This document shows positions 4,470-61,023 of a stretch of DNA of 64,000 nucleotides, in pieces. The notes below the pieces were generated by a model, which worked only from the letters and a program-made list of their open reading frames with translations, was not told the DNA's origin and did not search any database. Positions within the stretch are counted from its first letter, which is position 1. Every line of letters begins with the position of its first letter. Location: NCBI GenBank assembly GCA_963693285.1, contig OY848917.1, forward strand, positions 16,554,192 to 16,618,191, read 5' to 3'. Origin of the DNA: Xestospongia muta. Its lineage: Eukaryota; Porifera; Demospongiae; Haplosclerida; Petrosiidae. The position numbers were made by a program, and so were the translations under genes.

Positions 4470-7024
4470 GATCAGATGACAGCTCTATATTGGGCCTCAA
4501 GCAATAATCACACTGAGATAGTCCAGTTACTCCTGCAGTATAATGCCGATCCTAATATTTGTGACGAGGTCTGTCTATGACTTCTTTTATTCTAAATCTA
4601 CTTTAACACAGGATGGTAATACTGCATTACATATTGCCTGCAAAGAAGGTCATATCTATGTTATACAATCTTTGGTATCTGAAGGAGCAGATATGACTAT
4701 TAAGAATAATGGGAGTAAGACTCCTTTAGATGAATGTCAAGACACAAGGAAAGATGAAATTGCTAGTCTTGTTTCTAAATACAATCCAAAACGAGGTGAA
4801 ATGTTAAACAACAAATATGTAGTACTCCTACTTGTTTGATTTGTTATTATTTAGTTTTGGAAGATGTGTCTAAATGGAATATTGAATACCTCAATGAAGA
4901 GCAGGTTTTTGAGAAACACAAATATGGAGTCAAGTTTGTCATTCCACCATCATCAGTGGAGGTAGGGCAAGAAGTCAAAACAGAAGTCAAAGTAGTTGCA
5001 CCAAATGAGTCAGAGATCATCCTTCCTCCTGATGTTGAGATTGTTAGCTGTTTCTACAAAATTGAAACAAGAGGAAAATTCTCTAGACAAATTGAGCTTC
5101 ACATTCAACACAATGTTGAGCTAAGGTCAGAAAAGGAAAGCCAACAGCTAGCCTTTGTCAGGGCTAAAGGGTCACCACCATACAAGTTTGAGCTGTTACC
5201 AACTGAATATAACCAAGTGTTCAGACCCTACGATAATTCTGGTGTTGTAAGAATCCACAATATTTCTTTTGTTGCTATTGTCATCGAAAAAATAAAGAGT
5301 GCTCTATCTCAACAGCCATCTCTCAGTTATGTGATGACAGTCTTTTTCAAGGAAATGGAAAAATTCTGTTGGGAAATACAAGCAGTGGTCACAAAAAATC
5401 TTGGACCTTTTCTCGAGGTATGCAGACATAAAAAAGAGAACTAAAATACTATATTACCACTGTGTACATGTTCTTTGTTTATTTCAGAGAGTGAACACAG
5501 AGAAATGTTTTGAAAACTGGAAAAGGATAGGACCAGTTACTCTCTCTGATCCTGACATCAGTGAGGTTACAACTGCTAATGAGTGTTATGACATTAAGCC
5601 ATTGATGAATCCATTTAAAGTAAAGTTCAGTTGGTTTTATGATCTTTTAAATATAGTGTCATTTAAGGTTTGTAGGAAAGTGGTTGATCAATGTCAACCA
5701 GACACAGCCCTACCTTATATAAAGTTTAAAGTCTCTCTCAAAGAGGAAAAGAAACTCACTGACCTAGAGCTCACTTTTAAAGGAATAAGTGAAGAAATGA
5801 CTTTGGTAATTGGTAGTTATGATTTGCAACAAGTGCAGGAGACAACAAGTAAGAGACAATAAGGATAGGATCTAGTCATGTTTCTGTCAGGATAAAACAT
5901 TGCTGGACCTTTTATAAAATACTGAATATACTAATATGTATGCTCCTTTTCCTAATAGTTAACTCTGCCAGCACTTCTTCAGCCACTACTACTACTGCTA
6001 GCATGCCTACTTCTACCAGTAGTTCTCCTTCTATCCATAGACAGTCATCATATCCATTAGGAATATCTGATGAATTATTATGTGAGTTATGCAATATCCC
6101 AAGTTAATGGATAATTTGTCATTAAATTAATTTAATCATCTTTCATATTTACTCATTACTAGGTAAAGAGCCCAAGAAAAACCACCTGATGACACTACTT
6201 CACGAAATTAAGCACATGTGGAATATTATTGGTGGACAACTTGAAGTGCGTTATTGTGATATAAAGTCTGCTGAATATAATGTGGCATATAACGATACCA
6301 CAAAACTCTCAGAAGTCCTTCAGGTGTGGATAGACAAGAGAACATGTGAAGTGTCTTGGAGAATGATCATCACTGTTGTGAAGGAGCCACCTGTAGAACA
6401 CAAAGTAGTAGCTGAAAAGATATATAAGTTTTTAGCAAGGCGTGAGATTAGAAATGAATATCTCTCTTCTTATCAACCTGGTAAAGTTAGAAAATATTTA
6501 TTTAACAATTTCTCTAATGTTCCTTTCTAGGTCAAGTGATTACTACTTTTAATTCTCCACCTCCAGCTCAAACAAAACCTACTGAGATAAAAGGTACAAC
6601 TATATAGCTATAATATTAAATGACTCATTTACATGTTTGTTATATTGCAGTTCACCCTATTAATCCTACTACTCCACCTCCAATTGCACAAAAATCAGCT
6701 AAAAAGAAAGGTACCTACAACTAAATAGACTCTAAGATACTTACATTATAGGTCAACCTTTATCTGGTGCCCAACCTCCAAATATACCACAACTTGGTGA
6801 GAAGATAAATATGAAACAATTAGACAAATATCTTTATATACCATGAACATATTTGAAGGGATGTAATATTCATTTCTTTCTAGTGAAAGTAGATGAAATG
6901 GAACAAGAAGCTCCCTTACAGTCATCCAATCCTATTGGAGTAAGTTAATTAGTTATTATGATTTATTACTATAACAGTCATACTATTACATTGTTTTCAT
7001 ATATCTTTTGATATGCACATCCAC

Positions 7025-7059
<35 letters not shown>

Positions 7060-8421
7060 GTGTAATGCATTTCTCTATTAGTTTGCTGCTCATTGTCTTC
7101 ATAAACAAACTAAACAATGGGAGGAGAAAGATAATGATTTGATTGTAGCTGCTAAACGTATGGCCAGACTGATGATGCAAATGTCAAAGTTTGCCCAGTA
7201 AGTATTTTAGATTGAAATGTACACCTCAATATGTTGTACTTTATAAAATGTTGATATCACAAACACACCCACTATAGTTATAAATAGTCAGTAATTAAGC
7301 ACTAAAACTAATACTTTACACTGAGTATTGTACTAACGTATTACTTTCAGTTTGATAATAATTATGATTAACTTTCCTCTATAGAGATGAAGAAGGTGAT
7401 GTAAATTCTAAAGAAGATTTTATCCAAACAGCTAATCTTATTGTCAAAGACAGTGAAGAGGTCGTTAAAATAGCTACACAAGTTGCTAAACTATGTACAA
7501 ACAAACAACTGAAAAAAGTGAGGTTCAGAGTTTGATAACAAAACCTTTTAATGTGTGAGTGTGTAGCAAAAAATATTATAATTTTTCAACACTTCTTGAT
7601 AAATAGATAGAAACTCTAATATTTATTCACACCAGAGTTTGGTTATTTGCAAATTTCTCTTTAATTTCACTTAATACATTCCTTTATAGACTCTTTCAAA
7701 AGTCCTTGATGGTATTCCAAATTATGCCACACAACTCAAAATAAATGTTGATGTGCATGCCAAAAAAGGAGATAGTAAGTTATAAATTGAGAAGTATTGG
7801 TACTCAATCATTGCTATAACTCACAAACAAAAGTATACTTATTTAATCAAGATAATATTTTCCTTTTAATTAATAGTAAGCTTAACAGAGTAACAAAAGT
7901 AATTAAAAGTAACACAATAGTTTTGTAAGATTTGAAATAATTACTGTTGGTCTAAAATTGTAAGTACATAAATTCATGTAGTCATCATGTTATACAACTG
8001 ATTCTACAAATGTCAAAATAAACTATATGATGACTTATTTGATATATTGTGTCTTAAAGAGTAACTAAAGTACTATGTTCCACACAGTGGGTACTTCCAT
8101 GATTAAAAGCTGTTGTCCATGTTATAACAGTGTAACTATGTTATTATTGTATAATATTAACATTTCTTCAGCCAGTTTATACTACACATGTACATATATG
8201 TATCTTACATATAGTATTACAATGTATCTTATCCACCTTGTGTAATTCCTTCATTAACAGACCCAGAAGGAGATAAAGAAGCTATTAGTTTGTTGACAGT
8301 TAATGCTGAGAATCTCATGACTGCTGTTGGTATAGTACTTGAAAATACAGAGAGTGCTTTAGTAAAAGTACCTCCAAAAGCTCGTGTACACTTGACTGGT
8401 CTAAGCTGGGTTAAAAAATAA
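4470..8421 (+). CDS. Ankyrin-ZU5-UPA-death-vinculin-tail fusion protein, left paralog (5' end not found)
   Basis: Fifteen exons join in frame: 4470-4568, 4612-4795, 4855-5417, 5488-5619, 5668-5848, 5959-6081, 6163-6480, 6531-6593, 6651-6710, 6752-6796, 6884-6939, 7082-7197, 7385-7517, 7690-7774, 8261-8421. They give 772 visible residues and a TAA stop. Residues 1-94 are ankyrin repeats ([11 protein letters not shown]). Residues ~110-250 are ZU5 ([18 protein letters not shown]), then a UPA-like stretch to ~385. A Ser/Thr linker follows (387-427), then a death domain (~433-530; [23 protein letters not shown]). Residues ~534-590 are a proline-rich neck. Residues ~592-772 match the vinculin tail ([57 protein letters not shown]). 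ZU5-UPA-death modules signal or scaffold; vinculin tails bind F-actin and acidic lipid. A link from death-fold assembly to the cytoskeleton is inference. The start codon and any further ankyrin exons lie upstream, unseen. The first visible donor (GTCTGT) is weak. Confidence 0.85.
7026..7056. repeat. TA dinucleotide microsatellite
   Basis: An uninterrupted TA run lies in the intron before the first vinculin-tail helix exon. The right paralog has a TA run at the same place (about 56,018-56,041). Confidence 0.9.
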
Positions 8422-9194: not shown

Positions 9195-9717
9195 TAGGGT
9201 GTCCAACCATGCATAACTCAACATACAAACATTTCGTCTAAATTTTTAGTATACGAAGAGCCCTCACCTTGTTTATAATGTATGCGAAGTTTGCAATAAT
9301 TTTGTTTTCTCAATGGTTCATAATGATAATTTGACTCAATTGAGGCAAATTTTGGTCACGTGATCAATGACGTACTACATGTAATTGATATTATTGCCAA
9401 CTCAAATGTTCACAGGACATTTTATTTAAGTCAAGAATTTAAATTGGAATCACATAACATACCTGTGCAATAGTACAAGAAAAGAAGTCGAATAGAACAC
9501 TTGAGTATAAAATTGCTGCATACCGTATGCCAACGTCATTGATCACGTGACCAAAATATGCCTCAATTGAGTCGTGCACAGTAAAATTATCATTATGAAG
9601 CATTGAGAAAACAAAATTATTGCAAACTTCGCATACATTATAAACAAGGTGAGAGCTCTTCGTATACCAAAAATTTAGACGAAACGTTTGTATGTTGAGT
9701 TATGGTTGGACACCCTA
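9195..9717. mobile_element. 523-bp foldback MITE with long terminal inverted repeats
   Basis: Both ends read TAGGGTGTCCAACCAT inward, and the inverted similarity continues for roughly 200 bases on each side, including GGTCACGTGATCAATGACGT. The element is flanked by a 7-base duplication TCCATTG (9188-9194 and 9718-9724). The matching position in the right duplicate (about 58,473-58,490) reads CAGTCTCCATTGTTATCC, a clean empty site with one TCCATTG. There is no coding capacity. The 7-8 base target duplication would suit a hAT-like or similar cut-and-paste family, but the mobilising transposase is not identifiable here. Confidence 0.9.
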
Positions 9718-9724
9718 TCCATTG

Positions 9725-11160
9725 TTATCCTAATCTGATTAACTGTTGACAAATGTGACTAATATTTTACAAATAATTATGCAAATATGGTATAATCTTT
9801 TGTAGGATCAAGAGAACACTTTAGAGAGGAAAAGATGAAAGCAGAAAAGAAACAATGGAAGCAAGACAAAGTAGAGTGAATGGTAATAGTACTTATACAA
9901 CAATAAAGAGAGTAATTGTAAAATAAGACAAACCAATGACAAAAAAGAAACAAGACTCAGAAGACTGGCTACAAATACAGTTTATAAAAGATTGTGAAAA
10001 GAGAAAACTGAAACTAAACAGATAATGCAACATCAATACCTTAATGAAGCATACATCAACAAACATTGGCTGAAAATAATATGTACCAGGACAGAAGATG
10101 AATTAACAGAACTATGTGATCTATTTTTGAATTACCTAATTGATATTTAATTTTATTACCTATTGTATCAAACCCTAGTACTACTATGCTTGAGAATTGC
10201 TGGAGTTACAAAGAACCTCACATTGTGAGGAAATTCAATCTCACATGTACAATTTACAGTAACTGTCTGCATTCTATACATCATTGTATTATTGTTAAGA
10301 TATAAGAATATACCACTTACTTACATAGTTCATGTAGTTCAACAAATGAAGTCTCTTGATCAGAAAAGATATGCAGGACTGTTCTATTATAAATTCCATA
10401 GTGACAAACCTACATGTAAATTCTAGTGTCTAACTAATGAGACATTAAACAGAATATTACCTTGAAAATTAATGTTAACCAGTATAATAGTTATGTCTGA
10501 TGTCTACTATACTTGTCAGTGTCTTGTATGCAGCCTAAATGACTCTATATTGGTTAAGTCAACTGATAAATTTTTTTGTAACATGTATGATGAATATATC
10601 AAGAAATGTAATTTTACCTCTGGCCAAAGAATATGCAAAAAAGTCTTAAACAGTATTAACTATCAAAGTAAAATAGGAGCATTTATGGAGGAAAGACTTC
10701 ATATTTAACCAAGACAATATTTTCCTTCAACTAATAGTAACATTAAGAGAGAATCAACAGTAACTGATAGTAACACAATAGTTTTATAAGGTTTCAGATA
10801 AGTACAATTTCTCTAAAAATGTAAGTATATACATAAATGTATATAGTCATCTTGTTATACAACTAGTCCCACAAATGTGACATTAAACTATAGTATTTTT
10901 ATATTGAGATATTTGGTATATTTTGTCTTTAAAAAGTAACTAAACTATTTATATTTCACATAGTAGGTGGGTACTCCCATCATTAAAAAGTGTTGCCCAT
11001 ACTTAGTGTATTACAATAGTGTTGTTATATTATTTTGATATGATATGTCTTTCTCCACAAATTATATTGCTTGGAAATAGCATATACATAGTATGTATTT
11101 TACATATAGTATTATATTATGTACCTTCTCTAATTTTTTGTGTATTTACTTGATTTTATA
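9725..11160. other. Intergenic stretch, duplicated, no gene
   Basis: No consistent exon chain. Most of it recurs at about 59,430-60,800. From about 10,700 it is a diverged second copy of the fusion gene's last intron (compare 7,850-8,260). The small reading frame at 10,472-10,708 is not kept in full in the right copy and is not called as a gene. Confidence 0.5.
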
Positions 11161-11290
11161 GACCTGAAGCAGATAAAGAAGGTATTAGATTGTTGACAGT
11201 TAGTGGTAAGAATCACATGACTGCTGTGGGTGTAGTACTTAACACTATAGAGAGTGCTTTAATAAAATATCTCAAGGAGCTCCTGTGGAC
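11161..11290 (+). pseudogene. Decayed spare copy of the vinculin-tail last exon
   Basis: After TTTTATAG the sequence parallels the last exon of the fusion gene (compare 8261-8421). It carries the same run through RLLTVSGKNHMTAVGVVL and ESALIKY. One base is missing close to the acceptor and another near the end of the exon, which leads to an early stop. The preceding intron is also duplicated, so exon and intron were copied together. The same broken exon occurs in the right duplicate near 60,806, so the local duplication predates the segmental duplication. Confidence 0.75.
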
Positions 11291-11588
11291 TTGACTGGTC
11301 TAAGATGGTCAAAACGTCGCACTGAACTAGTAAACTTATGATCATTGATGTATCTTGTATATGTACCATCTAGTTGTCTCTAATAGTAGTATAGTTTTTA
11401 GATTTATTGGTATTGTGTAACTGCTGAGTTTATTCTCCTCAATATGATGTAATTTCAATTGAGTATTTACTAAACTCTATTAGTTTGACTTTACAAAACG
11501 ACCATAACTTTGCTAACTGCTTATTATTGAGTTTAAGTAGATATCATTGGATTCCTTCATTCTTTCAGTTCTTATATCATGGAGTGAT

Positions 11589-19700: not shown

Positions 19701-22700
19701 TTATTGTTAGCATTTTAAAGTTAGTATTCTAAGAGACTATGATCTCTCATAAGAAAACTATACTTGTAGAGTGGAAAAATTATGATGAGCACTTGTGGCT
19801 ATACTGTTGTTATACAATCATTTAGCTAAGGATGTTTGCTAAATTCAATAAACATTTTCTGTTCAACAAATGTGGTTTTCTCAAGAAGATCATTGTTCTT
19901 TAACTAAACACTCAACCATTGGTATATAAATTACATAGCTACATTGACCTTAGTGTAACACCTCATCAGATCATGTACCAATATACAAGAAATGATAGAA
20001 TACATAATGTTGTAGACATACCTCACATGATGATGAGTGTGGTGATCTCCCTTCATCAATACAATAACATACAACCTATTGTTATATCAGATAAAATAAC
20101 AAGTACATAAAAATATAATAGATTAACTTACTTTTGTTATACGATCACGAGTATCAATAATCTAATAAGAGGACAACAAAGAGTTAAAAATACAGTTGTA
20201 CCATCATATGATCAATTTTTCCTTTTAAACTCATTAAATATTAATTGAACAACATAACATATATAAATACATTATTGACATACATTCATACTTACCTCTA
20301 ATCGTTGCATGTCCAGTACATAAATAGTCCCTATATATAAAAATAATAGACATTAATATAACTGATTGATAATTATAATAATTAAAGAAGAGGTGTGGCT
20401 GATAAACAAGTATCACTTTCTAATTATAAAATACATGTACTTGAATACTGTTATTGATATCTGGATCTAATGTGTATTACTGAACTTATAGGTACAGTTC
20501 AGTGTGTTCAACGACAGATCTGATGTGTATTACTGAACTTATAGGTACAGTTCAGTGTGTTCAATGACAGATCTGATGTGTATTACTGAACTTATAGGTA
20601 CAGTTCAATGTGTTCAACGACAGATCTGATGTGTATTACTGAACTTATAGGTACACTTCAGTGTGTTCAACGACAGATCTAATGTGTATTACTGAACTTA
20701 TAGGTACAGTTCAATGTGTTCAATGACAGATCTGATATGTATTACTGAACTTATAAAAATAAATAAATTATAACAAACAAAACAAATAAAACTAACCATC
20801 TAATTGTGCCAATAGTCTGTTCATACTAGGTATCAATGTTAGTTGTTGTAATGTCTTGCGCTGTAACATAGTCATATAATATATCATAGTATAATCCATT
20901 AATAAACAGTATAAATAGTAGATACTCTAATAAGACAAGGGAAGAAATTATGCTTCCATTAACTGCCATATATTTAGCTTTTAGAGATATAATATCGCTC
21001 TTTTCTGTCTAGTAGACAATTTTCTATATCCTAATAATATTATATTAATGATAATTAACATCAAGCAAAGAAGGATGGGTGTGTTCAAATTATTACATGT
21101 GGGCTCACAAAGATGACAATTAATACTTTATTAATTTGAATGCATTTTTGTTCTTATTTCAATTAAAATAGGAGGTACTCACTATAGCAAGTTATAAATA
21201 TAAATAAACTTTGATAGTAAAGTACACACCTAATATTTACACTACTTCATATACAGTGTCTGTTATTTAGAGGTTCCACAATACACATACATATATTGTA
21301 CATACATTACCACATACTGGTATAAGCTATACTTACCCGATCTGCATCTAGCTGTTTACGTACTCTTAATTTAGACTGATAAATTGTCTTGCCAAGGGGA
21401 GACTTACCATCTACCAAACTATAATACAAGATGGATCTATAAAAAAGAAAATAAAAATATGAAAGGCACTAAAGTGCCGAACCTCGCTGTAGTTTCTAAG
21501 TTATTTATAAATTCTATGCCAGCTTAGGCCCAGCTATGATGTTGTTATTGCAAGAAAATTTATTAACATTCCAGAAGGTGTGGTTATAAAATGGTAATTT
21601 TTGTCATTCTGTATATGCTCATTAATTGTTGCTTGATTTCTAGCTTTGCCATGTTTGTGAAGCAGTAACTGAGTAAGTGATAGTATCATTCAATTGCCAA
21701 GCAAGATTAAGTGCTAATTTCATGATGAAAAGTTTCTCTGAGTCTTTACATGACCCTTTAAAATGTATCAATATTTCATATATAAAATTTATTGTCACTT
21801 GAAGATGAAACGTTCTTTGGAAACGTCCCGTAGTACAAATATAAATCAATATATTATCTATTAGTAGCAGTCTTTTCAGTGCTTGGAGACGTTTCCTGAA
21901 TGCGTGACTTTGCTCCAAGTCCACAAAACATTTTTCAGAACTTTTCTAACGATTACTTCGACCAACGGCCTTCTATCTTGCTGATCCGTATTCCTCTGAG
22001 ATTGTTTACAACATACTAAAAAATCTCCACATTAAGTTTTTTACTTTTCGAGAAACGGCACTTGACCTCTGCAGCCTGAAAATTCTTTTGCGAGTTTTAA
22101 GCTTCTGTTTTCCTTGACGATGTTCTTGATACTACTGTTGTAAAGTCCACATGTTTTTCTATTCATTGCTAAACGTTTTACGTTTTCTCTCGTGTTAGTG
22201 AAGATGTCAACAGGAAAAAGACTGAAGTCTCAAACAAAGGAGGTTGTTCCGAATATCAATGACTATTTCGAGGAACTCAACAGGTATAAACGGACTCAAA
22301 GGCCTCTTAAACAAACAGCTGATGCCACAGGTGTTTCACGTACTAGCATCAAGAGGCTACAGAAAGAGAAAGTTGACACTGGTGGAGCTACTTTTTCAAC
22401 TCCAACAAAGAGGTACAGAGTCTCCAGACGCCTGTTAGGTGATGATTTTGATTGTGAAGCAATCAGACGGAAAATATACCACCTCTATCAAGCCAAAGAA
22501 CATGTGACACTTACCCAAGTTGCTTCTTGAGTTAAAAAGGATAACATCTTTCGCGGTCAGAGGTCAATCCTCTGCATCTTGCTAAGAGAAATGGGTTTCA
22601 AGTGAGTCATCATTACTTTTGTTATGATACCTATTAATATTGTACTTTATAGACATAAGAGAGTGGATGACAGATGCCACTACTACAAACAACCTCATAT

Positions 22701-24592
22701 TATTGAACAGAGGCATGCTTACCTTTGTCAAATGAGGACGAACCATCAAGAGAATAGGTCAATTGTTTACCTTGATGAGACCTAGGCCAACGCTCACGAT
22801 GATAAAGATTGTGCTTGGGTGGAGAGGGATGATGTGATTGGTGGAACCCTTAGGGGTATAAAAAGGCCTCCTAGGAAGGCTTATTATTCTTGGAGATGGT
22901 GGTGAGATTGATTGGATTCCCAATACCACTCTCATATTCAGATCCCCAAAAATACTGGTGATTACCATGATGAGATGATTGCTAATTATTTTGAGGAGTG
23001 GTTTGCTACCAAACTTCTCCCCAATATTCAACCTAACAGTCTTATTGTCATGGATAATGCCTCATATCATAGTCGTCGTAGTGACCCTGTCTCAGTCAAG
23101 AGTTGGACAAAGCAAAAGATGCAAGATTGGTTTCAGGCAAAGAGAATTGAATTCCCAACAAATTCCTTAAAAGCTGAATTATATAGCATCATACAAAGAT
23201 TGAAACTTACTCCTCGCTATGTTGTTGATGACATGGTAGCTGCTGCTGGTAAGTACTCACTCAAGATAGTATTTTATTTATTGATCTGTACACCATATAG
23301 GGCACGAGGTAGTCTGACTCCCTGTTGCTCACTGCACTCTCAATCCTATTGAGTTGGCATGGGTACAGGTTAAAGGTCACATCAAGGCCAATACTCGAGT
23401 ATTTAATCTTCGTGAGGTAGACCAGCTGGCATGGGAGAGTTTTGATGTTGTGACACCTGACCGTTGGAAGAGCCTCATTCAACATGTTCAAATCCACTAT
23501 GAAGACCACTATCGGTCTAGTGATGGCCTCTATGAGGAGTTAGTGGATGAGTTCATCATTCAAGTTGGAGGTGAATTGGATGAGTCTGATGATTCAGATC
23601 AATCTGATAGTTCTGATGACAAATAGTTCTAGGCATTCTTAGTTTTCCTTCTTTATTAAATGGGTTTTTTTTAGAACCACTGTGGTTTAATAGCGGCCTT
23701 AAATCACAAAAGACAATACCTGATTATTATTTTTATAATAAATAGTAGTCATAATAGAACATCTGTTCATATAATTAGAACTGTAATTTTGAATTGCCAC
23801 GTGACACGCAGCTGACTTCTAATGGTAAAAATTGCTATTTATTAAAATTCTCGAAGGTGTTGAGTTTGAAGTATTATGAAGGTATGTAATTGAAAATGTA
23901 TGGAGTTTTTTAGTTTGCTACTTTCTCATAGCACTATAGAGCCAAATTTTATATATAAAATGTGGGTTTGCAAGCTGAATTGATTGGTGCAAGTTCTATG
24001 CAGATAGCACATAAAACGACAAAGTTATTTACATGTTTGGGTGTCAAACATACTATAGTCTTTACTAATATTGTATCCAACAGCAATTTACTGACCTCTA
24101 TCACATCAACATATAAATAAGCTTTAATAGTGATCTCTAAGCCCAGTATGTGGACATAAACAGTGATTTCAGACAAATATTTATGATTTTAATTCTGAGT
24201 ATACATGATTTAAACATTATGTCAGACCTCACACTTTGTACCCAAACAGAACAGGGACATTCCAGTTGGGTACAAGACAAAGGTCAGAGATCTACAAGGA
24301 GGTGTGGTCTAGAGTGTGATTTAGAAATTCTCTACTCATTACATATTTCAGATTGAAGCAATCACCCTCAATTACATATACTTTCAATTATTATCACCTC
24401 AATATGTGTATACCAACCATCTTTGTACACAACTATGTTTGGTAGGTTAGCTAAGATTTGCCTGTTTGTAACATGTAATAAATATAAGCTCTATAACATA
24501 CCTGTTTGTCTGGTGGTAGCTGCTCTATGACAGACACCAAATCAAAGGCAGAAACAAGGTAACCACGTCTTGAAGACACGAGGATAAGCAAA
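12192..24592 (-). CDS. TGFBRAP1: TGFBRAP1/VPS3-like CORVET subunit (left copy; start and one early exon not found)
   Basis: Minus-strand exons, in transcript order: 24502-24592, 21337-21436, 20797-20860, 20296-20330, 20132-20161, 19548-19658, 19147-19239, 18990-19049, 18783-18845, 18279-18422, 17761-17853, 17074-17175, 16659-16763, 16426-16507, 15841-15896, 15748-15789, 15380-15505, 14934-15072, 14306-14513, 14104-14198, 13889-14000, 13544-13633, 13379-13449, 13262-13334, 12822-12956, 12483-12538, 12192-12330. The product shows an N-terminal CNH/beta-propeller region (AFDLVSVIEQ, LADSGN), VPS39-type helical repeats (YFALGLLYYYNGN, YIEHHELYLNFEDARVAF) and a C-terminal zinc-binding end (VCPVCQLPFTEA, FVRYPNGIVTHLKC). 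The family bridges Rab5 endosomes in CORVET tethering and, in vertebrates, also binds TGF-beta receptors. No ATG is visible before the first exon. Phases require one more exon between 24,502 and 21,436, which I could not find. A transposon occupies that intron. Confidence 0.85.
13741..13787. repeat. GT microsatellite in a TGFBRAP1-like intron
   Basis: About 20 GT dinucleotides with one interruption. The homologous intron of the right copy (about 63,280-63,300) has only a short ATGTAC-rich segment instead, so the run is copy-specific. Confidence 0.85.
17211..17623. mobile_element. 413-bp MITE with TA-type ends
   Basis: The left end TACCGTATATCGGGAAAC is mirrored at the right by a segment whose complement reads TACTGTATATTGGGAAAC, two mismatches in 18. 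The terminal TA pair is consistent with a Tc1/mariner-type target. It sits in an intron of the TGFBRAP1-like gene and contains no gene. The interior has repeated GCGAATT/GCAAATTT wording. Confidence 0.75.
20464..20755. repeat. 53-bp minisatellite, about 5.5 copies
   Basis: GATCT recurs at 20464, 20517, 20570, 20623, 20676 and 20729, exactly 53 bases apart. Units share GTATTACTGAACTTATAGG and differ at a few positions. The array lies in an intron of the TGFBRAP1-like gene. Each unit contains a GGTACAGTTCAGTGTGTTC core. No function is apparent. Confidence 0.95.
21462..22203. mobile_element. Left end of the DDE transposon, shared with two deleted relatives
   Basis: This starts with AAAGGCACTAAAGTGCCGAA, which contains the palindrome GGCACTAAAGTGCC, followed by CCTCGC. 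It runs without a gene up to the transposase start. The same sequence recurs at 33,059-33,810, and its last third recurs again at 34,882-35,100, where the transposase region is absent. This marks it as the non-coding left part of the element that carries the transposase at 22,204-23,626. Confidence 0.75.
22204..23626 (+). pseudogene. Inactive DDE-type transposase
   Basis: Exons 22204-22601, 22653-23248 and 23301-23626 read as a transposase. It has an N-terminal helix-turn-helix-like part (ATGVSRTSIKRLQKEK), then catalytic-type motifs SIVYLDET, SLIVMDNASYHS and CTLNPIELAW, and an acidic Asp/Ser-rich tail. The second D and the E are about 80 residues apart, much more than the 34-37 of classical Tc1/mariner enzymes. 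The relation is to IS630/DDE_3-like invertebrate transposases, subfamily unknown. It is dead: in-frame stops occur at 22528 (TGA), 22783 (TAG, where a Trp is expected) and 23315 (TGA), plus a one-base frameshift near 22,878. Two stops look like CGA-to-TGA decay. The element sits in the first visible TGFBRAP1-like intron on the opposite strand. Confidence 0.85.
23627..24501. other. Intron remainder, no gene seen
   Basis: This is the rest of the first visible TGFBRAP1-like intron. The missing exon required by phase should lie between 21,437 and 24,501. Open segments near 24,090, 24,250 and 24,400 on the minus strand were examined, but none ends in the required phase. The right end of the transposon was not located. 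Confidence 0.5.
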
Positions 24593-51582: not shown

Positions 51583-54500
51583 GAGGGATCTACTCCAGTC
51601 ATATTAGCAGCAGAGAGGGGACACAGGGATATTGTTTGGATTTTAGCACAGAAAGGAGCTAATCTAGACATTGTTAACAAAGTAAGTGTTCATGTACATA
51701 TGTTATATAACAAACACTATATAACTGAAGACAAAATGTAGCTGTCTTAAAAAATATGGAAAATGAATGATTAGCACAATGGAACTATTTTTAATTAAAT
51801 TAGAATAAATATTAAAATTTTCATAAATTTTCTGGTAATCACACAAATATAATGGTGAATTGTCAAGATGTGAAACAACATTTTTGAATTTCTCTTTATC
51901 ATTAACACTCAGAGCTAATTTATTTGTATATAATACATATAATATAATTATATATAATATATACAGTAAATAATTGTTTGTTAATTTGGTTAGGCATAAT
52001 TTATTGTTAATATATGAATAATAAACAAGTATGATTACAGTAAACTATGCCCTCATGGTTTATATCACTGAAATCATGCACTAAACATACTGTGGGGCTC
52101 AATTTAATTAATGAAATGAAGACTTTCTTACTAACATACATGATGAAGTTACTTTTTTGCATTTTTAATGTTAGTTCTGATTTTAAATTTTGGCTTTTGC
52201 TAATGGCTGTCATAATTTGTCAATTTCGTTAGATAAATATGTCACAAGGATTTGTCTTTCAGATTCATATCACTCTTTCAAAGGAACTAATGATTTCATA
52301 GGATTGTTCACATTTGACTTAGCTCTGTTGCCAAATTTAAGGAATATTTGATCCAAATGAACAAATCCTAATTGGTAAAACGAAAACTGCTTAACAAATA
52401 TGATGATGTCACTTTTTGCATTTTCAATTTTAGTACTGAGCTTTTTCTTTTGTCAGATAGTATTATGGTTACATGAACATGAAAATCATTATTCTACCAA
52501 TCTGCATTGGCACCATTTATCCAATATTCATTGCATAATTAAACTAATTTTAATAAATAATAATAAGTAAAAACATTGTCAGACCTCACTAAGATGTAAA
52601 AACTGGGCTGTCATTATTTTGTGACAACAATATTAGACATCCACATTATGCAAGGAGTTAGTTTTATAGAGTAATGCAATCATTAATAGGATCAACTTTA
52701 CCTCATGACACCTTTATAATATTCAACATCTAGAATGGCAAAACATTAGTATGTAAGACAGTTATTGTGGATATGTACGGATACTGATGTATGTACTACA
52801 TAGTATAGTTATGTTTATATAGTAGAGGATGTAGTGTATTGTGTAAATTAATGATATAATACAATTAAAGAAAATATTGAAGTGCCATATACTTAGTAAC
52901 TTTGGAGGTAGAAAATATTGACAAATTTCATGAAATGTATTTCAATTGCCAAAATTTTATCCTCGAATACTTTAATTAGGGGTGTGGTAGTAGGTAGAAG
53001 ACTCCGTTCACAAATTTAATTTCTTCAAACTCTAGTATATTTTAAATTCATTAATATTTTCTCCCTTCAAAATTATCCACTATGTGGTAGTCAATGTGAA
53101 ATATAATAATTAACATTTTTTGAATCAGCAGACAGCTATATATTGGACTTCACTGACCAATCACACTGAAACAGTCCAGTTACATTTACATTAATAATGC
53201 TGATCCTATTATTTTTAGAAAGATTAGTGTGTATTGTGCATAGATATTATTATGTACAGATATGATATTGTAGTATGTACTACATATTCTTAGGGCTATA
53301 TCATAGTGCGTAATATAAATTTGTCTAGGATCGGATGACAGCTCTACATTATGTCTCAAGAAGTAATAACACTGAGATAGTCCAGCTACTCCTGCAGTAT
53401 AGTGCAGATCCTAATATTTGTGACAAGGTTAGTCTATAACTTATTTTATTGTTAATCTACTTTAACACAGAATGGCAATACTGCATTGCATATTGCCTGC
53501 AAAGAAGGTCATATAAATATTATACAATCCCTGCTATCTTGTGGAGCAGATATGACTATTAAGAATAATGAGGGTAACACTCCATTAGATGAATGTCAAG
53601 ACACAAACAAGGATAAAATTGCTAGTCTTTTTTCTAAATACAATCCAAAACGAGGTGAGGTATTAAACAACAACTATATAATAAATAAAAAATGTTAAAG
53701 TTAATAAATGTACTATTACTCCTACTTGTTTGGTTTGTTATTATTTAGTTTTGGAAGATGTGTCTAAATGGAATATTGAATATCTCAATGAAGAGCAAGT
53801 TTTTGAGAAACCAGAGTATGGAGTCAAGTTTGTCATTCCACCATCATCAGTGGAAATAGGGCAAGAGGTCAAAACAGAAGTCAAAGTAGTTGCACCAGGA
53901 GAGTCAGAGATCAACCTCCCTCCTGATGTTGAGCTTGTCAGCTGTTTCTATAAGATTAAGATAACAGGAAAATTCACCAGACCTATTGAGGTTCATCTCC
54001 AACATAACGTTGAACTCAAATCACAAGAGGAAAGTCAACAGCTAATATTTATTAGAGCTAAAGGACCACCACCTTATATGTTTGAACTGTTACCAACTGA
54101 CTATGACCAAGTGTTCACACCTTATGACAATTCTGGTGTTGTAAGAATCTCTGATTTTTGTCTCATTGGTATCATCCGATATTTAATTAATTCTCTAATT
54201 GAATGGCCATCTCACAGTTATGTAATGACAGTCTTTTTCAAGGAGATGGAGAAATTTTGTTGGGAAATACAAGCAGTGGTCACAAAAAATCTTGGACCTT
54301 TTCTTGAGGTATAGAAGACATAACAAAAAGAGAATTACAATACTAGATTACAACTGTATACATGCTATTTGTCTATATTAGAGAGTGAAGACAGAGAAAC
54401 GCTTTGAAAACTGGAAAAGGATAGACCCAGTTACTTTCTTTGATCCTGAGATTAATGGAGTTACAACTGCTAACGAGTATTATGACATTAAGCCATTGAT

Positions 54501-57438
54501 GGATCCATTTCAAGTAAAGTTCAGTTGATTTTGTGATCTTTTAAATATAGTGTCCTTTAAGGTTTGTAGGAAAGTGGTTGATAAATGTCAACCAGACATG
54601 GCCCTACCTTACTTAAAATTTAAAGTCTCTCTCAAACATAAGAATGAACCCCCTGACCTAGAGCTCACTTTTAAAAGAATACGTCAACCTTTGACTTTGG
54701 TAATTCCTAGTTATGATCTGAAACAAGTACAGGAGACAACAAGTGAGAGACAATAAAAATAGGATCTAGTCATGTTTCTGTCAGCATAACACATTGCTGG
54801 AGCTTTTATAAAATGCTAAATATACTATAATATGTATTTCCTAATAGTTAACTCTGTCAGCACTTCTTCAGCCACTACTCCTACTACTGATAGTATGTCA
54901 ACTTCTACCAGTAGTTCTCCTTCTATTCATATACAGTCATCATATCTATTAGGAATATCTGATAAATTATTATGTGAGTTATGCAATAAGCAAGTTAATG
55001 GATAATTTGTCATTAAATTAATTGAATCATTTTTCACATTTCCTCATTACTAGGTAAAGAGCCCAAGAAAGAGCACCTGATGAGACTACTTCATGAAATT
55101 AGGTACAAATGGAATACTATTGGTGAACAACTTAAAGTGCGTTATGATGATATAAAGTCCGCTGAATATAATGTGGCACATGACCATACTACAAAACTAT
55201 CAGAAGTCCTTCAGGTGTGGATAGACAAGAGAACATGTGAAGTGTCTTGGAGAATGATCATCACTGTTGTGAAGGAGCCACCTGTAGAACACAAAGTAGT
55301 AGCTGAAGAGATATATAAATTCTTAGCAAGGCCTGATATCAGGAATGAATACCTCTCTTCTGATCAACCTGGTAAAGTTGAAAAATATTTATTTAATGAT
55401 TTTTTCTATGTCATTCTATAGGTCAAGTGATTACCACTTTTAATTCTCCACCTCCAGCTCAACCAAAACCTACTGAAATAAAAGGTACAACTATATAGCT
55501 ATAATATTAAATGACTCATTTACATGTTTGTTATATTGCAGTTCACCCTATTAATCCTACTGCTCCACCTCCAATTACACCAAAACCAGCTAATAAGAAA
55601 GGTACACACAACTAAATAGACTGATAGATACTTACGCCATATAGATCGATCTTTATCTGGTCCCCAACCTCCAAATACACCACAACTTGGTGAGAAGATA
55701 AATATGCAACAATTAGACAAATTTCTTTGTATTCCATGAACATATTTGAAGGGATGTAATATTGATTTTTTTCAGTGAAAGTAGATGAAATGGAACAAGA
55801 AGCTCCCTTACAGTCAACCAATCCTATTGGAGTAAGTTAATTAGTTATTATGATTTATTACTATGACATTATGTGACATAATTTCATAAAACACTTGTAT
55901 ATTGTAGTAACATGTACCGCAAAGTAGTTATGTATAAATGCAAACGTTCTCTGAAGTTTCAAGTGCATCCACAATAAATAAAATTTTGTATTCATCTATA
56001 CACATGCATATAGTATGTATATATATATATATATATATATACAAATGTGTTTATTGATATTATGAATACATCTCTCTATTAGTTTGCTGCTCATTGTCTT
56101 CATAAACAAGCTAAACAATGGGAGGAAAAAGATAATGATTTGATTGTAGCTGTTAAACGTATGGCCAGGCTGATGATGGAAATGTCAAAGTTTGCCCAGT
56201 AAGTGTTATAGAGTGAAATGTATACTTCAAGATGTAGTTTATAAAATGTTCACTGAACTAAATATCACAAATACAAATATATCTGCTGTAGTTATAAATA
56301 GTCAGTAACTTAGCAATGAAAGTGTACTATACCCTGAGTATTGTACTAATGTATTACTTTCAGTTTGATAATAATTACAATTACATAGAGATGAAGAAGG
56401 TGATGTTAATTCTAAAGAAGATTTTATCCAAACAGCTAATCTTATTGTCAAAGACAGTAAGGAGGTTGTTAAAATAGCTACACAAGTTGCTGAGCTCTGT
56501 ACAGACTCACAGCTGAAAAATGTGAGTTATAGAGTTTGATAACAAAAATATTCATTTATAGAGTACCTTTAATGTGTGTGTAATAAGATTATAATTAGTT
56601 AACACTTCTTATATGAATTAATTTAAACTGTAATATTTATTCACACTTGACATTGGTCATTTGCAAACTTCTCTTTGATTCCATTTAATACATTCCTTTA
56701 CAGACTCTGTCACAAGTCCTTGATAGTATTCCAACTTATGCCACACAACTCAAAATTAATGTTGGTGTGCATTCAGGAAAATATGGTAAGCCAATAACTT
56801 TATGAGGAATATTAGTACTCAACCATTGATAGAACTCAGAAAACAGAAATATACTTATTTAACCAAGACATTATTTTTCCCTTTAATTAATAATAAGATT
56901 GAGAGAGTAACAAAAGTAATTGATAGTAACACATAGTTTTGTAAGGTTTGAAATAATTACAGTTGGTTTAAAAATGTTAGTATATAAATTCATATAGTCA
57001 TCATGTTATACAACTGATTCTACAAATGTCAAAATAAACTATATGATGACTTATTTGATATATTGTGTCTTAAAGAGTAACTTAAGTACTATGTTCCACA
57101 CAGTGGGTACTTCCATGATTAAAAGCTGTTGTCCATGTTATAACAGTGTAACTATATTATTATTATATAATATTAACCTTTCTTCAGCCAGTTTATACTA
57201 CACATGTACACATATGTATCTTACATATAGTATTACAATGTATCTTATCCACCTTGTGTAATTCCTTGATTTTACAGACCTAGAAGGAGATACAGAAGCT
57301 ACTAGTTTGTTGACAGTTAATGCTGAGAATCTCATGACTGCTGCTGGTGTAGTACTTGAAATTACAGAGAATGCTTTAGTAAAAGAACCTCCAGATGCTC
57401 GTACATACTTGACTGGCCTAAGCTGGGTCAAAAAATAA
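51583..57438 (+). CDS. Ankyrin-ZU5-UPA-death-vinculin-tail fusion protein, right paralog (5' end not found)
   Basis: Sixteen exons: 51583-51681, 53329-53427, 53471-53654, 53749-54308, 54382-54513, 54562-54742, 54848-54973, 55054-55371, 55422-55484, 55542-55601, 55645-55689, 55776-55831, 56083-56198, 56389-56521, 56704-56785, 57278-57438. All phases agree; 804 visible residues, TAA stop. It repeats the domain order of the left paralog and adds an upstream 33-residue ankyrin exon (TPVILAAERGHRDIVWILAQ) with strong GTAAGTG donor. ZU5 shows [18 protein letters not shown], death [11 protein letters not shown] and SWRMIITVV, tail [19 protein letters not shown] and GLSWVKK. The tail ends level with vinculin's C-terminal arm but lacks the final TPWYQ. 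Here the small intron 54514-54561 must be spliced, because it contains an in-frame TGA. The absence of stops in both copies argues for two functional genes. Start exons may lie left of the satellite. Confidence 0.85.
53125..53215 (+). pseudogene. Decayed ankyrin exon
   Basis: Wording such as CAGACAGCTATATATTGGAC, AATCACACTGAAACAGTCCA and AATGCTGATCCTATTATT parallels the ankyrin exon at 53,329-53,427 and its left partner at 4,470. Deletions and the missing acceptor and donor mean it can no longer be spliced in as a repeat. Confidence 0.65.
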
Positions 57439-60400
57439 CACTGAACTAGCAAACTCAATTGATTGCTGTGCCTTTTATATGTAACTTTTAGTTACCTCAA
57501 CTAGTAGTGATTTTTTAGATATATTGATATTTTGTAGTTGCTGATATTGTTTTCCTCAGAATGATGTCATTTCAATTGAGTATTCACTAAACAATATTTA
57601 GTTTGACTTTGTAGGATGACCATAACTTATTTGTACTGCTTGCATGCTATTGAGTTCAAATTGATATCATTGGACTCCTTTCATTCTTTCAGTTCTTATA
57701 TTGTGGAGTGATTGATAATTTAACCAAGTTTCTTATTAGTAAGTAGACAAACTCAGCAAGATTGGGAATCTGACTTCTTATCATAGTACACATGACACAA
57801 CAGATTATAATGTCACTATTATAAATAGATATAATTGTTGCTGGGCTAATGCAGAATTAAATGATTGTAAAATATTCCTATAAATGGATAGATGGAAAGA
57901 TTGTGACTACCATACTGATGAATGATAATCTGTTTTACAACTTGAGTCTGACATTGATATTATATTGGAGTACTAGAGTATATGCAATAAATTAAACTGG
58001 CTTATTATTGCATGAGCTCACTTTGTGTACATTGAAGATACAGTCCTGTCTGGTGATCAATCAATATAATATTCATTCTAGTTTGTGATGATTTGTATAT
58101 CTTTTGTTAATATGATCCATATATTATAATTGCAGTTATACTCATAACTATGACACCTACACAATCATGCATATATTAGAACCCTTAGACCTATAGCTGT
58201 CATAGCATTTGCTGATGTACTCTTTGATGCAAGGCATCCACTGGTAAGTTATAATGATACATCATCAGCTAGTTCTTTGGTACAAGTATTAAAGGATAAT
58301 TACATTGACATATATGAAGTAATATAATGCAAAAATAGAAAGATTTTAAGACAATAAAAAAATGGAATTTTGAAACTATTAGGTAACATAAAGACACTAT
58401 TTTATAATTTTTTAAACTTAGATACTGTGACAGCATGCAGAATTTGAAACTAAATCATATTCTGTTTACTACAGTCTCCATTGTTATCCTAATCTGGTTA
58501 ACTGTTGACAAATGTGACTATATGACTAATGCTTTGCAAATAATTATACAAATATGGTATAATCTTTTGTAGGAATGGTGGCTTTCAAAAATACCTATTA
58601 CAAGTGATGGAAATCATTTTTTTAAAATGATGAAATGATGCTAAGAAACCTTGTGGAATAAAATGAGAGAAATACGAGCATTGACAATTGCTACAATGTT
58701 ACTGTTCAGCTGAAGATGTTTGCTGTATAGGTGACAATTGAATGTGTCATTAATAACATTGTATGAGTTATTACTGTCAAAGCAGGCAAACATGCACCAG
58801 CTGAAGCAGGAACATGTCAGTTTGTGGTGGTGACAAAATTAAGGAGTCACGTATCTTGTTAGAGTGAGTTACTGTACTATAACATCTCTGTAGATTGAAA
58901 TAAAGAATACTTGATGGGGCAGCTTGTTACTCAAATTATTGAACCAGACATAGTCTTTTTTCTGGTAATCAATGACAGCAGAAACTCTTTTGTAATAGTG
59001 ACTTTAAAAAAGCCATTTATTTGAGCAAATCATGAGTAACACAAAAAATAATTTTGCTGCAGTCACAAATAATATTAAGGTTGTCTGTTGTCACTCTTGA
59101 ATGCTGCTTAACAACAAATTATTATTATGAAATCACTAATGCCAGAGAACAAGGTTTAGTTATAGTGCATATAAATAGATACAAAGATTAAGCTGACATT
59201 TTAGACAAGATGAGAAAGAAGCAAAAAAAGGAACAAAGTGATCGCATGAGAGGGAGGAAGAGTGAATGTGCCATAATAATGGAATATAAACCGAGTAACA
59301 GGGGACACAAATTAAGCTGACATTTTAGACAAGATGAGTAAGAAGCAAAAAGAGCAAGAGTGAGTGCACAAGAGAGGGAAGGAAGAGAGAAAGAGACTTA
59401 GTATTTGTGTATAAAATGAGTAACAGAGGATCAAGATTAAGAGAACATTTTAGAAAAGAAAACAGATGAAAGGAGAGAAGAAACAATGAAAGCAAGGCAA
59501 AGTAGAGTGAATAGTATCAGTACTTACACAACAATAAAAAGAGTAATTGTAAAATGAGACAAACCAATGACAATAAAGAAACAAGACTGGCTACAAATAT
59601 AGTTTATAAAAGATTGTGAAAAGAGAAAACTGAAACTGAACAGATAATGCAACATCAATATCTTAATGAAGCATACATCAACAAACATTGGCTGAAAATA
59701 ATATGTACCAGTAACAGAAGATCAATTAACAGAACTGCTATTAATATTTTGTACTATTGTGATCTATTTTTGAATTACCTAATTGATATTCAATTTTATT
59801 ACCTATTGTATCAAACTCTAGTAATACTATACTTGAGAATTGCTGGAGTTACAAAGAACCTCACATTTTGAGAAAATTCAATCTCACGTGTACAATTTAC
59901 AGTAACTGTCTGCATCCTATACATCATTGTATTATTGTTAAGATATAAGAATATACCACTTACTTACATAGTTCATGTAGTTCAACAAATGAAGTCTCTT
60001 GATCAGAAAAGATATGCAGGACTGTTCTATTATAAATTCCATAGTGATAAACTTACATGTAAATTGTAGTGTCTAACTAATGAGACATTAAACAGAATAT
60101 TACTTTGAAAATTAATGTTAACCAGTATATTAGTAATGTCTGATGTCTACTATACTTGTCAGTGTCTTGTGTGCAGCCTAAATGACTCTATATTGGGTAA
60201 GTCAACTGATAATTTATTTTATAAAATTTATGATGAATATATTAAATCAAGAAATGTAATTTTACCTCTGGCCAAAGAATACGCAAAAAAGTTGTAAACA
60301 GTATTAATTGACAAAGTAAAAATAGGAGCATTTATGGAGAAAGGACTTCATATTTAACCAAGACAATATCTTCCCTCAACTAATAGTAACATTAAGAGAG

Positions 60401-60805
60401 AATCAACAGTAACTAATAATAACACAATAGTTTTATAAGGTTTCAGATAAGTACAGTTGCTCTAAAAATGTAAGTATATACATAAATGTATATAGTCATC
60501 TTGCTATACAACTAGTCCCACAAATGTGACATTAAACTATAGTATTTTTATATTGAGATATTTGGTATATTTTGTCTTTATAAAGTAACTAAACTATTTA
60601 TATTTCACATAGTAGGTGGGTACTCCCATCATTAAAAACTGTTGTCCATACTTAGTGTATTACAACAGTGTTGTTATATTATTTTGATATTTGATATGTC
60701 TTTCATCCACAAATTATACCGCTAGGACATAGCATATATGCATTTTACATATAGTATTATATTATGTACCTCCTCTAACTTGTGTGTATTTACTTGATTT
60801 TATAG
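57439..60805. other. Intergenic stretch, duplicated, with a small tandem triplication
   Basis: This repeats 8,422-11,160. It carries the exon-like segment 58,189-58,243. Extra sequence from about 58,574 includes three copies with a period of about 125 bases, marked by the similar core AGCTGACATTTTAGA at 59,191, 59,315 and a variant at 59,441. No gene was built from it; the short frames at 59,647-59,871 and 60,115-60,297 are not conserved between copies. Confidence 0.5.
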
Positions 60806-60935
60806 ACCTGAAGCAGATAAAGAAGTATTAGATTATTGACAGTTAGTGCTAAGAATCACATGACTGCTATGTGTGTAGTATTTAACACTACAAAGAGTGC
60901 TTTAATAAAATATCTCAAGAATCTTACGTGGGCTT
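60806..60935 (+). pseudogene. Decayed spare copy of the vinculin-tail last exon, right copy
   Basis: This is the counterpart of 11,161-11,290. After TTTTATAG the frame is lost by small deletions and a TTG-to-TTA change that does not restore it. Only scattered matches to the intact last exon at 57,278-57,438 remain. Confidence 0.7.
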
Positions 60936-61023
60936 GACTGGTCTAAGATGGTCAAAAATTCACACTGAACTAGCAAATTCATGGATTCTTTTCATTCTTT
61001 CAGTTCTTATATCATGGAGTGAT

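What the first reader, a model, noticed from the sequence alone, without database searches (positions are those of the whole stretch)
4470..8421. Fusion of ankyrin, ZU5-UPA-death and a vinculin tail in one gene
The sequence shows one phase-consistent exon chain running from ankyrin repeats through ZU5 and death domains into a proline-rich neck and a vinculin tail. [19 protein letters not shown] lines up with vinculin NDIIAAAKRMALLMAEMSR, and later helices and the WVKK arm also match in order. Known biology: ZU5-UPA-death supramodules occur in UNC5, PIDD and ankyrins; vinculin/alpha-catenin tails bind actin and lipids. I know of no described protein joining them. Inference: a receptor-proximal or intracellular scaffold that couples death-fold assembly or inflammatory-type signalling to the actin cortex. 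The neck plus tail appear to have been captured together, since vinculin also has a proline-rich neck just before its tail.
Basis: partly seen in the sequence, partly recalled or inferred. Interest (0 to 1): 0.92.

Follow-up and report, generated by a model that had tools for sequence, protein, structure and literature searches.

The report
Death-domain scaffold with vinculin actin tail
A sponge-like animal carries dozens of copies of a gene that joins a cell-signalling scaffold (ankyrin repeats, ZU5 and death domains) to the actin-binding tail of vinculin, and some close sister copies have a membrane-anchor-like exon in the same place, which suggests signalling proteins with interchangeable anchors.

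Summary
The fusion is real at sequence level. Fifteen exons at 4470-8421 splice in one frame into ankyrin, ZU5, a putative UPA region, death domain, short neck exons and a full vinculin tail (Pfam Vinculin 5.8e-39). A second gene at 53329-57438 has the same 15 exons. In the own 158-Mb genome, 46 of the 68 closest death exons (93 of 150 listed hits examined) are followed by tail exons. Tail introns match the genome's own vinculin in position and phase, so the tail was copied as intron-bearing DNA; a tree separates 26 such tails from 9 vinculins (99/96). Nine matches of a transmembrane exon all lie downstream of tail-less sisters. Three loci have the tail behind 7TM-receptor exons. Residues matching vinculin I997 and V1001 are each kept in 21 of 23 models. 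Best reading: intracellular death-domain scaffolds with an exchangeable C-terminal anchor, actin or membrane. The fusion is well supported, the mechanism inferred. UPA is unconfirmed; the proline-rich neck was not shown to come from vinculin. No such fusion was found in the searches made.

The parts
4470..4568 (+). exon, ankyrin repeat (gene 1; five further ankyrin exons lie upstream of the window)
   Evidence: Pfam Ank; phase-0 exon with AG/GT borders
4612..4795 (+). exon, ankyrin repeat and spacer
4855..5417 (+). exon, ZU5 domain and start of the following region
   Evidence: Pfam ZU5 in 10 of 10 family members at E<=0.1, best 1.3e-7
5259..5267 (+). codons N-I-S at the place where 17 of 22 models (genes 1 and 2 included in the 22) read F-S or F-C, resembling the FIIND autocleavage motif
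   Evidence: motif from PMC3210808 (passages)
5488..5619 (+). exon, putative UPA region part 1
   Evidence: conserved in paralogs; no Pfam UPA match
5668..5848 (+). exon, putative UPA region part 2
5959..6081 (+). exon, Ser/Thr-rich linker
6163..6480 (+). exon, death domain
   Evidence: family profile matches FADD death domain at 1.8e-4; Pfam Death in 7 of 10 members at E<=0.1, not in this exon itself
6531..6593 (+). neck exon 1, phase 1-1, also in tail-less sisters
6651..6710 (+). neck exon 2, phase 1-1
6752..6796 (+). neck exon 3, phase 1-1
6884..6939 (+). neck exon 4, matches the end of the vinculin neck ([17 protein letters not shown])
   Evidence: P0032 and own vinculin L024
7082..7197 (+). 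vinculin tail exon 1
   Evidence: Pfam Vinculin; same intron phases as own vinculin
7385..7517 (+). vinculin tail exon 2
7690..7774 (+). vinculin tail exon 3, carries the I997- and V1001-equivalent residues (709 and 713)
8261..8421 (+). vinculin tail exon 4, ends WVKK stop
53329..57438 (+). gene 2, paralog with the same 15 exons; a further ankyrin exon at 51583-51681

Best explanation
This is one member of a large, tandem-duplicated family of intracellular scaffold or sensor genes in a demosponge-like animal. The protein is: several ankyrin repeats, one ZU5 domain with a putative UPA region, a death domain, fast-evolving neck exons, and the vinculin tail helical bundle without a vinculin head. 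SHOWN by sequence: one reading frame across the exons, constraint on ZU5, the UPA region, death domain and tail but hardly on the neck, tail exons with the intron pattern of the genome's own vinculin, fusion tails apart from vinculins in a tree, and a transmembrane exon downstream of tail-less sisters. INFERRED: the ankyrin repeats bind a partner or ligand; the ZU5 region holds the death domain in check; once freed, the death domain assembles with others and recruits downstream death-fold proteins; the C-terminal module places this assembly, on cortical F-actin and acidic lipids through the vinculin tail, or in a membrane through the transmembrane segment. Without a vinculin head the tail lacks the head-tail autoinhibition known for vinculin (recalled) and would be open to actin unless another part of the protein masks it.
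For: Exon chain in genes 1 and 2. Domain matches. 46 of 68 close death exons followed by tail exons. 16 of 21 further tail-bearing models have no stop; splice borders kept range from 8 to 14 of 14, with L027 and L036 at 14. dN/dS of gene 1 against L011: ZU5 0.16, UPA region 0.26, death 0.10, tail 0.35, neck 0.77. Exon gap columns between genes 1 and 2 are 9, against 197 in introns. Tail intron phases 0, 2, 0, 1 identical in gene 1, own vinculin, receptor-linked tails and L039. Tail tree: 23 fusion and 3 receptor-linked tails against 9 vinculins, 99/96. All 9 transmembrane-exon matches lie just downstream of tail-less death exons. I997 and V1001 equivalents each kept in 21 of 23 models; Vt I997A weakens actin binding in PMC10721916 (passages).
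Against: No transcript or protein evidence. Death and ZU5 are below the Pfam cut-off in gene 1, and its death exon is not among the listed Pfam Death matches of the genome. UPA was not detected. Structure models were unusable (mean pLDDT 57.8 and 36.1). Five of 21 tail-bearing models hold one to three stops, and the aligner penalises stops, so the stop-free ones are not fully independent evidence. Between genes 1 and 2 dN/dS is 0.50 overall and 0.59-0.65 for the tail; against the nearer copies the tail is 0.43-0.85: weak constraint at close range.
Confidence: 0.72

Rival explanations
1. Two neighbouring genes (an ankyrin-ZU5-death gene and a stray vinculin-tail fragment) that only look like one.
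For: No transcript data; a solitary, decayed-looking copy of the last tail exon exists at 11154-11294, with similar DNA at 60351-60981.
Against: Same order and strand at 46 of 68 close loci; neck exons all phase 1-1 up to the last one in genes 1 and 2; constraint on the tail; the chain upstream of the tail is death, ZU5 and ankyrin, not vinculin head; a transmembrane exon takes this place in tail-less sisters.
Confidence: 0.04
2. The vinculin tail does not serve actin binding and acts only as a helical bundle for dimerisation or scaffolding.
For: The residues that follow WVKR in own vinculin are missing; tail dN/dS is above that of ZU5 in all 12 distant pairs with gene 1 and above that of death in most of them.
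Against: I997 and V1001 equivalents each kept in 21 of 23 models; a membrane-anchor-like exon in the same place suggests a placing role.
Confidence: 0.2
3. The ZU5 region is a FIIND-like autoproteolytic gate that releases a UPA-death-tail fragment, as in PIDD, NLRP1 and CARD8.
For: F-S in 12 and F-C in 5 of 22 models near the end of ZU5; autocleavage at SF/S at the C-terminus of ZU5 is described in PMC3210808 (passages); one of 10 family members matches Pfam FIIND at 0.018.
Against: Gene 1 reads N-I-S and gene 2 D-F-C; the distant member L038 lacks the motif; the FIIND match is weak; no reliable structure model.
Confidence: 0.2

Closest known systems
Vinculin (tail domain Vt)
   Same: Tail aligned over residues 2-161 or more of 164 with most solved vinculins, neck end [15 protein letters not shown], four tail intron positions and phases as in own vinculin
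   Different: No vinculin head; joined to ankyrin, ZU5 and death domains; ends at WVKK
Canonical ankyrins (24 repeats, ZU5-ZU5-UPA, death domain)
   Same: Order ankyrin, ZU5, death
   Different: One ZU5 matched, UPA not matched, vinculin tail added; [quoted passage not shown]
UNC5, PIDD and NLRP1/CARD8 (ZU5-UPA with a death-fold domain)
   Same: ZU5 followed by a death-fold domain (family features from PMC3210808, passages)
   Different: Ankyrin repeats in front; actin or membrane anchor behind; UPA unconfirmed
Sponge lineage-specific death-fold expansions with variable C-termini (TRADD-N proteins of Amphimedon)
   Same: Large repertoire with variable C-terminal modules (PMC8195603, passages)
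   Different: TRADD-N was not looked for here; a vinculin tail is not among the modules named in the passages seen

Membership tests
Vinculin family | Homologous C-terminal tail | tested here: met
   Pfam PF01044 5.8e-39, profile positions 609-847 of 852; PDB vinculin sequences
Vinculin family | Vinculin head (D1-D4) | tested here: not met
   Only the end of the profile matches; exons upstream are death, ZU5 and ankyrin
Vinculin family | Actin-contact residues I997 and V1001 | tested here: met
   I and V in gene 1; each in 21 of 23 models. I997 from PMC10721916; V1001 as a contact is recalled
Vinculin family | F-actin and lipid binding | not testable with these tools
   needs purified protein
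Canonical ankyrin | Tandem ZU5-ZU5-UPA core | tested here: not met
   one ZU5 stretch per protein, no UPA match at E<=1
Canonical ankyrin | 24 ankyrin repeats | tested here: inconclusive
   7 ankyrin exons seen (2 in the window, 5 within 20 kb upstream); gene start not found
UNC5/PIDD-type ZU5-UPA-death | ZU5 domain | tested here: met
   10 of 10 members at E<=0.1, best 1.3e-7; gene 1 alone below cut-off
UNC5/PIDD-type ZU5-UPA-death | UPA domain | tested here: inconclusive
   no Pfam match; not covered by a usable structure model
UNC5/PIDD-type ZU5-UPA-death | Death domain | tested here: met
   FADD 1.8e-4 by family profile; 7 of 10 members Pfam Death at E<=0.1, not gene 1 itself
FIIND autoproteolytic proteins | SF/S (or HFS) cleavage motif at the ZU5 end | tested here: not met
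   gene 1 N-I-S, gene 2 D-F-C; F-S in 12 of 22 models

The most novel reading that the evidence does not exclude
An animal innate-immune type repertoire of ankyrin-ZU5-death sensors whose C-terminal anchor is exchanged by phase-1 exon shuffling between an actin tail taken from vinculin and a membrane anchor, with the same tail cassette shared with SRCR-bearing 7TM receptors. In F-S/F-C members a FIIND-like self-cleavage would free a death-domain fragment that stays tied to cortical actin, so that death-fold assembly is built directly on the cytoskeleton.
Probability: 0.2. Interest if true: 0.9.

Novelty: new variant of a known kind. Interest (0 to 1): 0.74.

Why it matters
Death-fold scaffolds and actin linkers are, as far as I know, separate proteins elsewhere. 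A large, selected family that joins them in one chain, with sister genes that have a membrane-anchor-like exon in the same place, offers a natural experiment on where death-domain assemblies are placed in a cell. It also shows an intron-bearing vinculin tail used as a C-terminal cassette by two unrelated host architectures in what is likely an early-branching animal.

Tried and rejected
Structure prediction of the death exon and the ZU5 exon gave low confidence (57.8 and 36.1; alignments of two and three rows), so no fold search was run. The first protein search was swamped by ankyrin repeats. The second, drawn from residues 98-772, found 44 proteins at 23-32% of the query covered; the Pfam sets listed for them hold Vinculin but no Ank, ZU5 or Death. 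The third scored 7991 candidates and found one 403-aa protein (P0076) that shares the ZU5 part. These searches see only relatives that share 5-residue words and fall within a length range, so absence is not proof. PDB profile searches with ZU5 alignments found nothing useful (one noise hit, none). An earlier death profile reached FADD only at 0.0083 with antibody sequences at 0.029. I considered that the proline-rich neck came with the tail and dropped this for neck exons 1-3. I considered a retrocopy origin of the tail and rejected it on intron positions. The ORFs at 22144-23626 looked like a transposase from recall only; Pfam gave no family at E 0.001 for the two scanned. The search of the own genome with a named vinculin did not complete; the own vinculin genes were recognised from tail hits and local tblastn. 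PMC12345144 was looked at for ankyrin, death domain, vinculin and ZU5; the passages held nothing on this fusion. Paper listings were partial: 20 of 41, 10 of 374, 12 of 86.

Full report
What is there. The window lies on contig C1 of a 158-Mb, 28-contig genome. At 4470-8421 fifteen exons with GT/AG borders join in one frame into 772 residues. Pfam finds ankyrin repeats, a sub-threshold ZU5 (0.0053) and Vinculin (5.8e-39, residues 532-772). The tail aligns with solved vinculins, best with VIN1 (6bfi, 1.9e-28), which I recall to be a sponge vinculin. Death was not listed for gene 1 at E<=1, but was for gene 2 (0.0079, below cut-off).

Second gene and extent. Gene 2 at 53329-57438 has the same fifteen exons, no stop, and 80.7% protein identity. 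Exon gap columns are 9 against 197 in introns. The two genes lie 49 kb apart in duplicated stretches. Five more ankyrin exons on the same strand lie within 12.2 kb upstream of the window (20 kb scanned). Four of the five show AG/GT flanks at the printed borders; the one at -4205 was printed one codon out of register. That they belong to gene 1 is inferred.

Are ZU5 and death real? Ten of ten ZU5 exons match Pfam ZU5 at E<=0.1, best 1.3e-7. Seven of ten death exons match Pfam Death at E<=0.1, best 2.8e-4, gene 1 not among them. The family profile hits FADD at 1.8e-4; 10 of the 11 PDB sequences listed at E<=0.1 are FADD. An earlier, smaller profile gave FADD at 0.0083 with antibody sequences at 0.029. 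In a Pfam Death scan of the genome the window's exon is not among the listed matches (150 of 1488 candidates scored). So the death domain is remote, but I take it as real. UPA is not shown.

The family. Searches of the own genome returned 158 tail matches (150 used) and 150 each for death and ZU5, all capped lower bounds. I took the 93 best of the 150 death hits: 48 of 93, and 46 of the 68 with at least 65% identity, are followed on the same strand by a tail exon within 9 kb and before the next listed death exon.

Selection. I modelled 25 stretches from fetched loci by spliced alignment; 21 bear a tail and 4 do not. Of the 21, 16 have no stop; L014, L017, L025, L035 and the second gene of L036 have one to three. 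Some models are partial (among them L029 and the second gene of L036). Splice borders kept range from 8 to 14 of 14; L027 and L036 keep all, and losses are mostly in and near the neck. Against the 12 more distant loci (L011-L015, L017, L019, L025, L032, L034, L035, L039) dN/dS of gene 1 is 0.16-0.29 for ZU5, 0.10-0.56 for death, 0.32-0.49 for the tail (0.74 for L019), and 0.47-1.05 for the neck where it could be computed (9 loci). These are simple NG86 values. Close pairs are higher and noisier, up to 3.28 for the tail of L034 against L015.

Origin of the tail. The genome's own vinculin genes lie at C1 28.84-28.86 Mb (L023, L024). The four tail introns have the same positions and phases (0, 2, 0, 1) in gene 1, two own vinculin copies, three receptor-linked tails and L039. 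So the tail was taken as intron-bearing DNA. Only neck exon 4 matches vinculin. In a tree of 35 tails, 9 vinculins and 26 other tails fall on two sides of a branch (99/96). This fits a single capture, but the root is not fixed and five rows, among them L017, L019 and L025, have long branches.

Tail exchange. For gene 1 against L011, tail dS is 0.30 while ZU5 and death dS are 1.36 and 1.70. The trees disagree: in the body tree L039 joins the L011 group (95/89), in the tail tree L039 joins the receptor-linked tails (100/100) outside a fusion clade that holds L011 (99/96). Gene conversion or cassette exchange of the tail is the likely cause.

A membrane-anchor-like exon. In L028 the exon after the neck has a phase-1 acceptor and codes one hydrophobic segment followed by KKRK and a stop; L026 and the second gene of L027 have close matches (hydropathy only, no dedicated predictor). 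The own genome holds nine matches at E<=0.01, and all nine lie 261-3948 bases downstream of death exons that have no tail. So of the 68 closest death exons 46 have the tail, 9 the transmembrane exon, 13 neither seen. In the body tree the three tail-less sisters group with tail-bearing L029 inside the tail-bearing genes (98/95), which suggests replacement rather than an ancestral state.

A second host of the tail. At C3 4.24-4.33 Mb three loci have secretin-type 7TM exons upstream of the tail (Pfam for L018 and L020, tblastn for L021). SRCR exons lie upstream at L018 and L021; at L020 the SRCR matches lie downstream and the locus ends too early to tell. An Ig domain was found at L018. In L018 the 7TM exon ends at a phase-1 donor, followed by acidic neck exons like those of L039 and then the tail. 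These tails are nested beside L039. That receptor and tail form one transcript is inferred.

How it may work. Shown: domains, frame, constraint, different C-terminal modules, and I997 and V1001 equivalents each kept in 21 of 23 models (numbering from the alignment). Vt I997A reduces F-actin binding (PMC10721916, passages). Inferred: partner binding by ankyrin repeats, gating by ZU5, death-domain assembly, and placing by the tail or the transmembrane segment. A FIIND-like motif is seen in many paralogs but not in gene 1 and remains a lead.

Known background. PMC5135030 (passages) describes canonical ankyrins and could not identify them in nine sponge species. PMC8195603 (passages) describes large sponge death-fold expansions with variable C-termini. 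PMC6208332 (passages) reports ankyrin-repeat and death-domain genes up-regulated on exposure to microbial molecules in two sponges. PMC6820919 (passages) reports one vinculin homolog in Ephydatia muelleri. Paper searches for the combination listed nothing that I recognised as this fusion; I saw listings only, apart from the papers named, and the library lacks most subscription papers.

Host. Own vinculin resembles Amphimedon queenslandica vinculin (65-92% per matched piece of L024, leaving out two pieces that run across introns), so a demosponge is likely but not proven.

Noticed in passing
L018, L020, L021 (C3 about 4.236-4.337 Mb): Vinculin-tail cassette downstream of 7tm_2 receptor exons (SRCR exons upstream at L018 and L021, Ig at L018), joined in L018 through phase-1 acidic neck exons like those of fusion gene L039.
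   Followed up: partly
L026, L027 (second gene), L028; nine places on C1: Sister genes without a vinculin tail have a transmembrane-like exon downstream of the death exon.
   Followed up: yes
window 11154-11294 and 60351-60981: A solitary, decayed-looking copy of the last vinculin-tail exon after gene 1, and similar DNA after gene 2.
   Followed up: partly
window 9196-9717: Insertion of about 520 bases with inverted-repeat ends of about 185 bases (90% alike), absent at the matching place after gene 2 (about 58477): MITE-like element.
   Followed up: no
window 22144-23626: Three ORFs of 102-146 aa that look like a transposase by eye; the two scanned gave no Pfam match at E 0.001.
   Followed up: partly
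whole genome G000: Pfam Death scan: 150 matches scored out of 1488 candidates, listed ones over the cut-off; a very large death-domain repertoire.
   Followed up: no
L023, L024 (C1 28.84-28.86 Mb): The genome's own vinculin is present as tandem copies; one tail model holds a stop.
   Followed up: partly
window 5259-5267 and paralogs: F-S or F-C near the ZU5 end in 17 of 22 models, resembling the FIIND self-cleavage site; gene 1 has I-S.
   Followed up: partly
C1:18966785, C1:10601165, C8:784543, C8:402089, C8:673744: Five tail exon matches with no linked death exon in the list used; context unknown.
   Followed up: no
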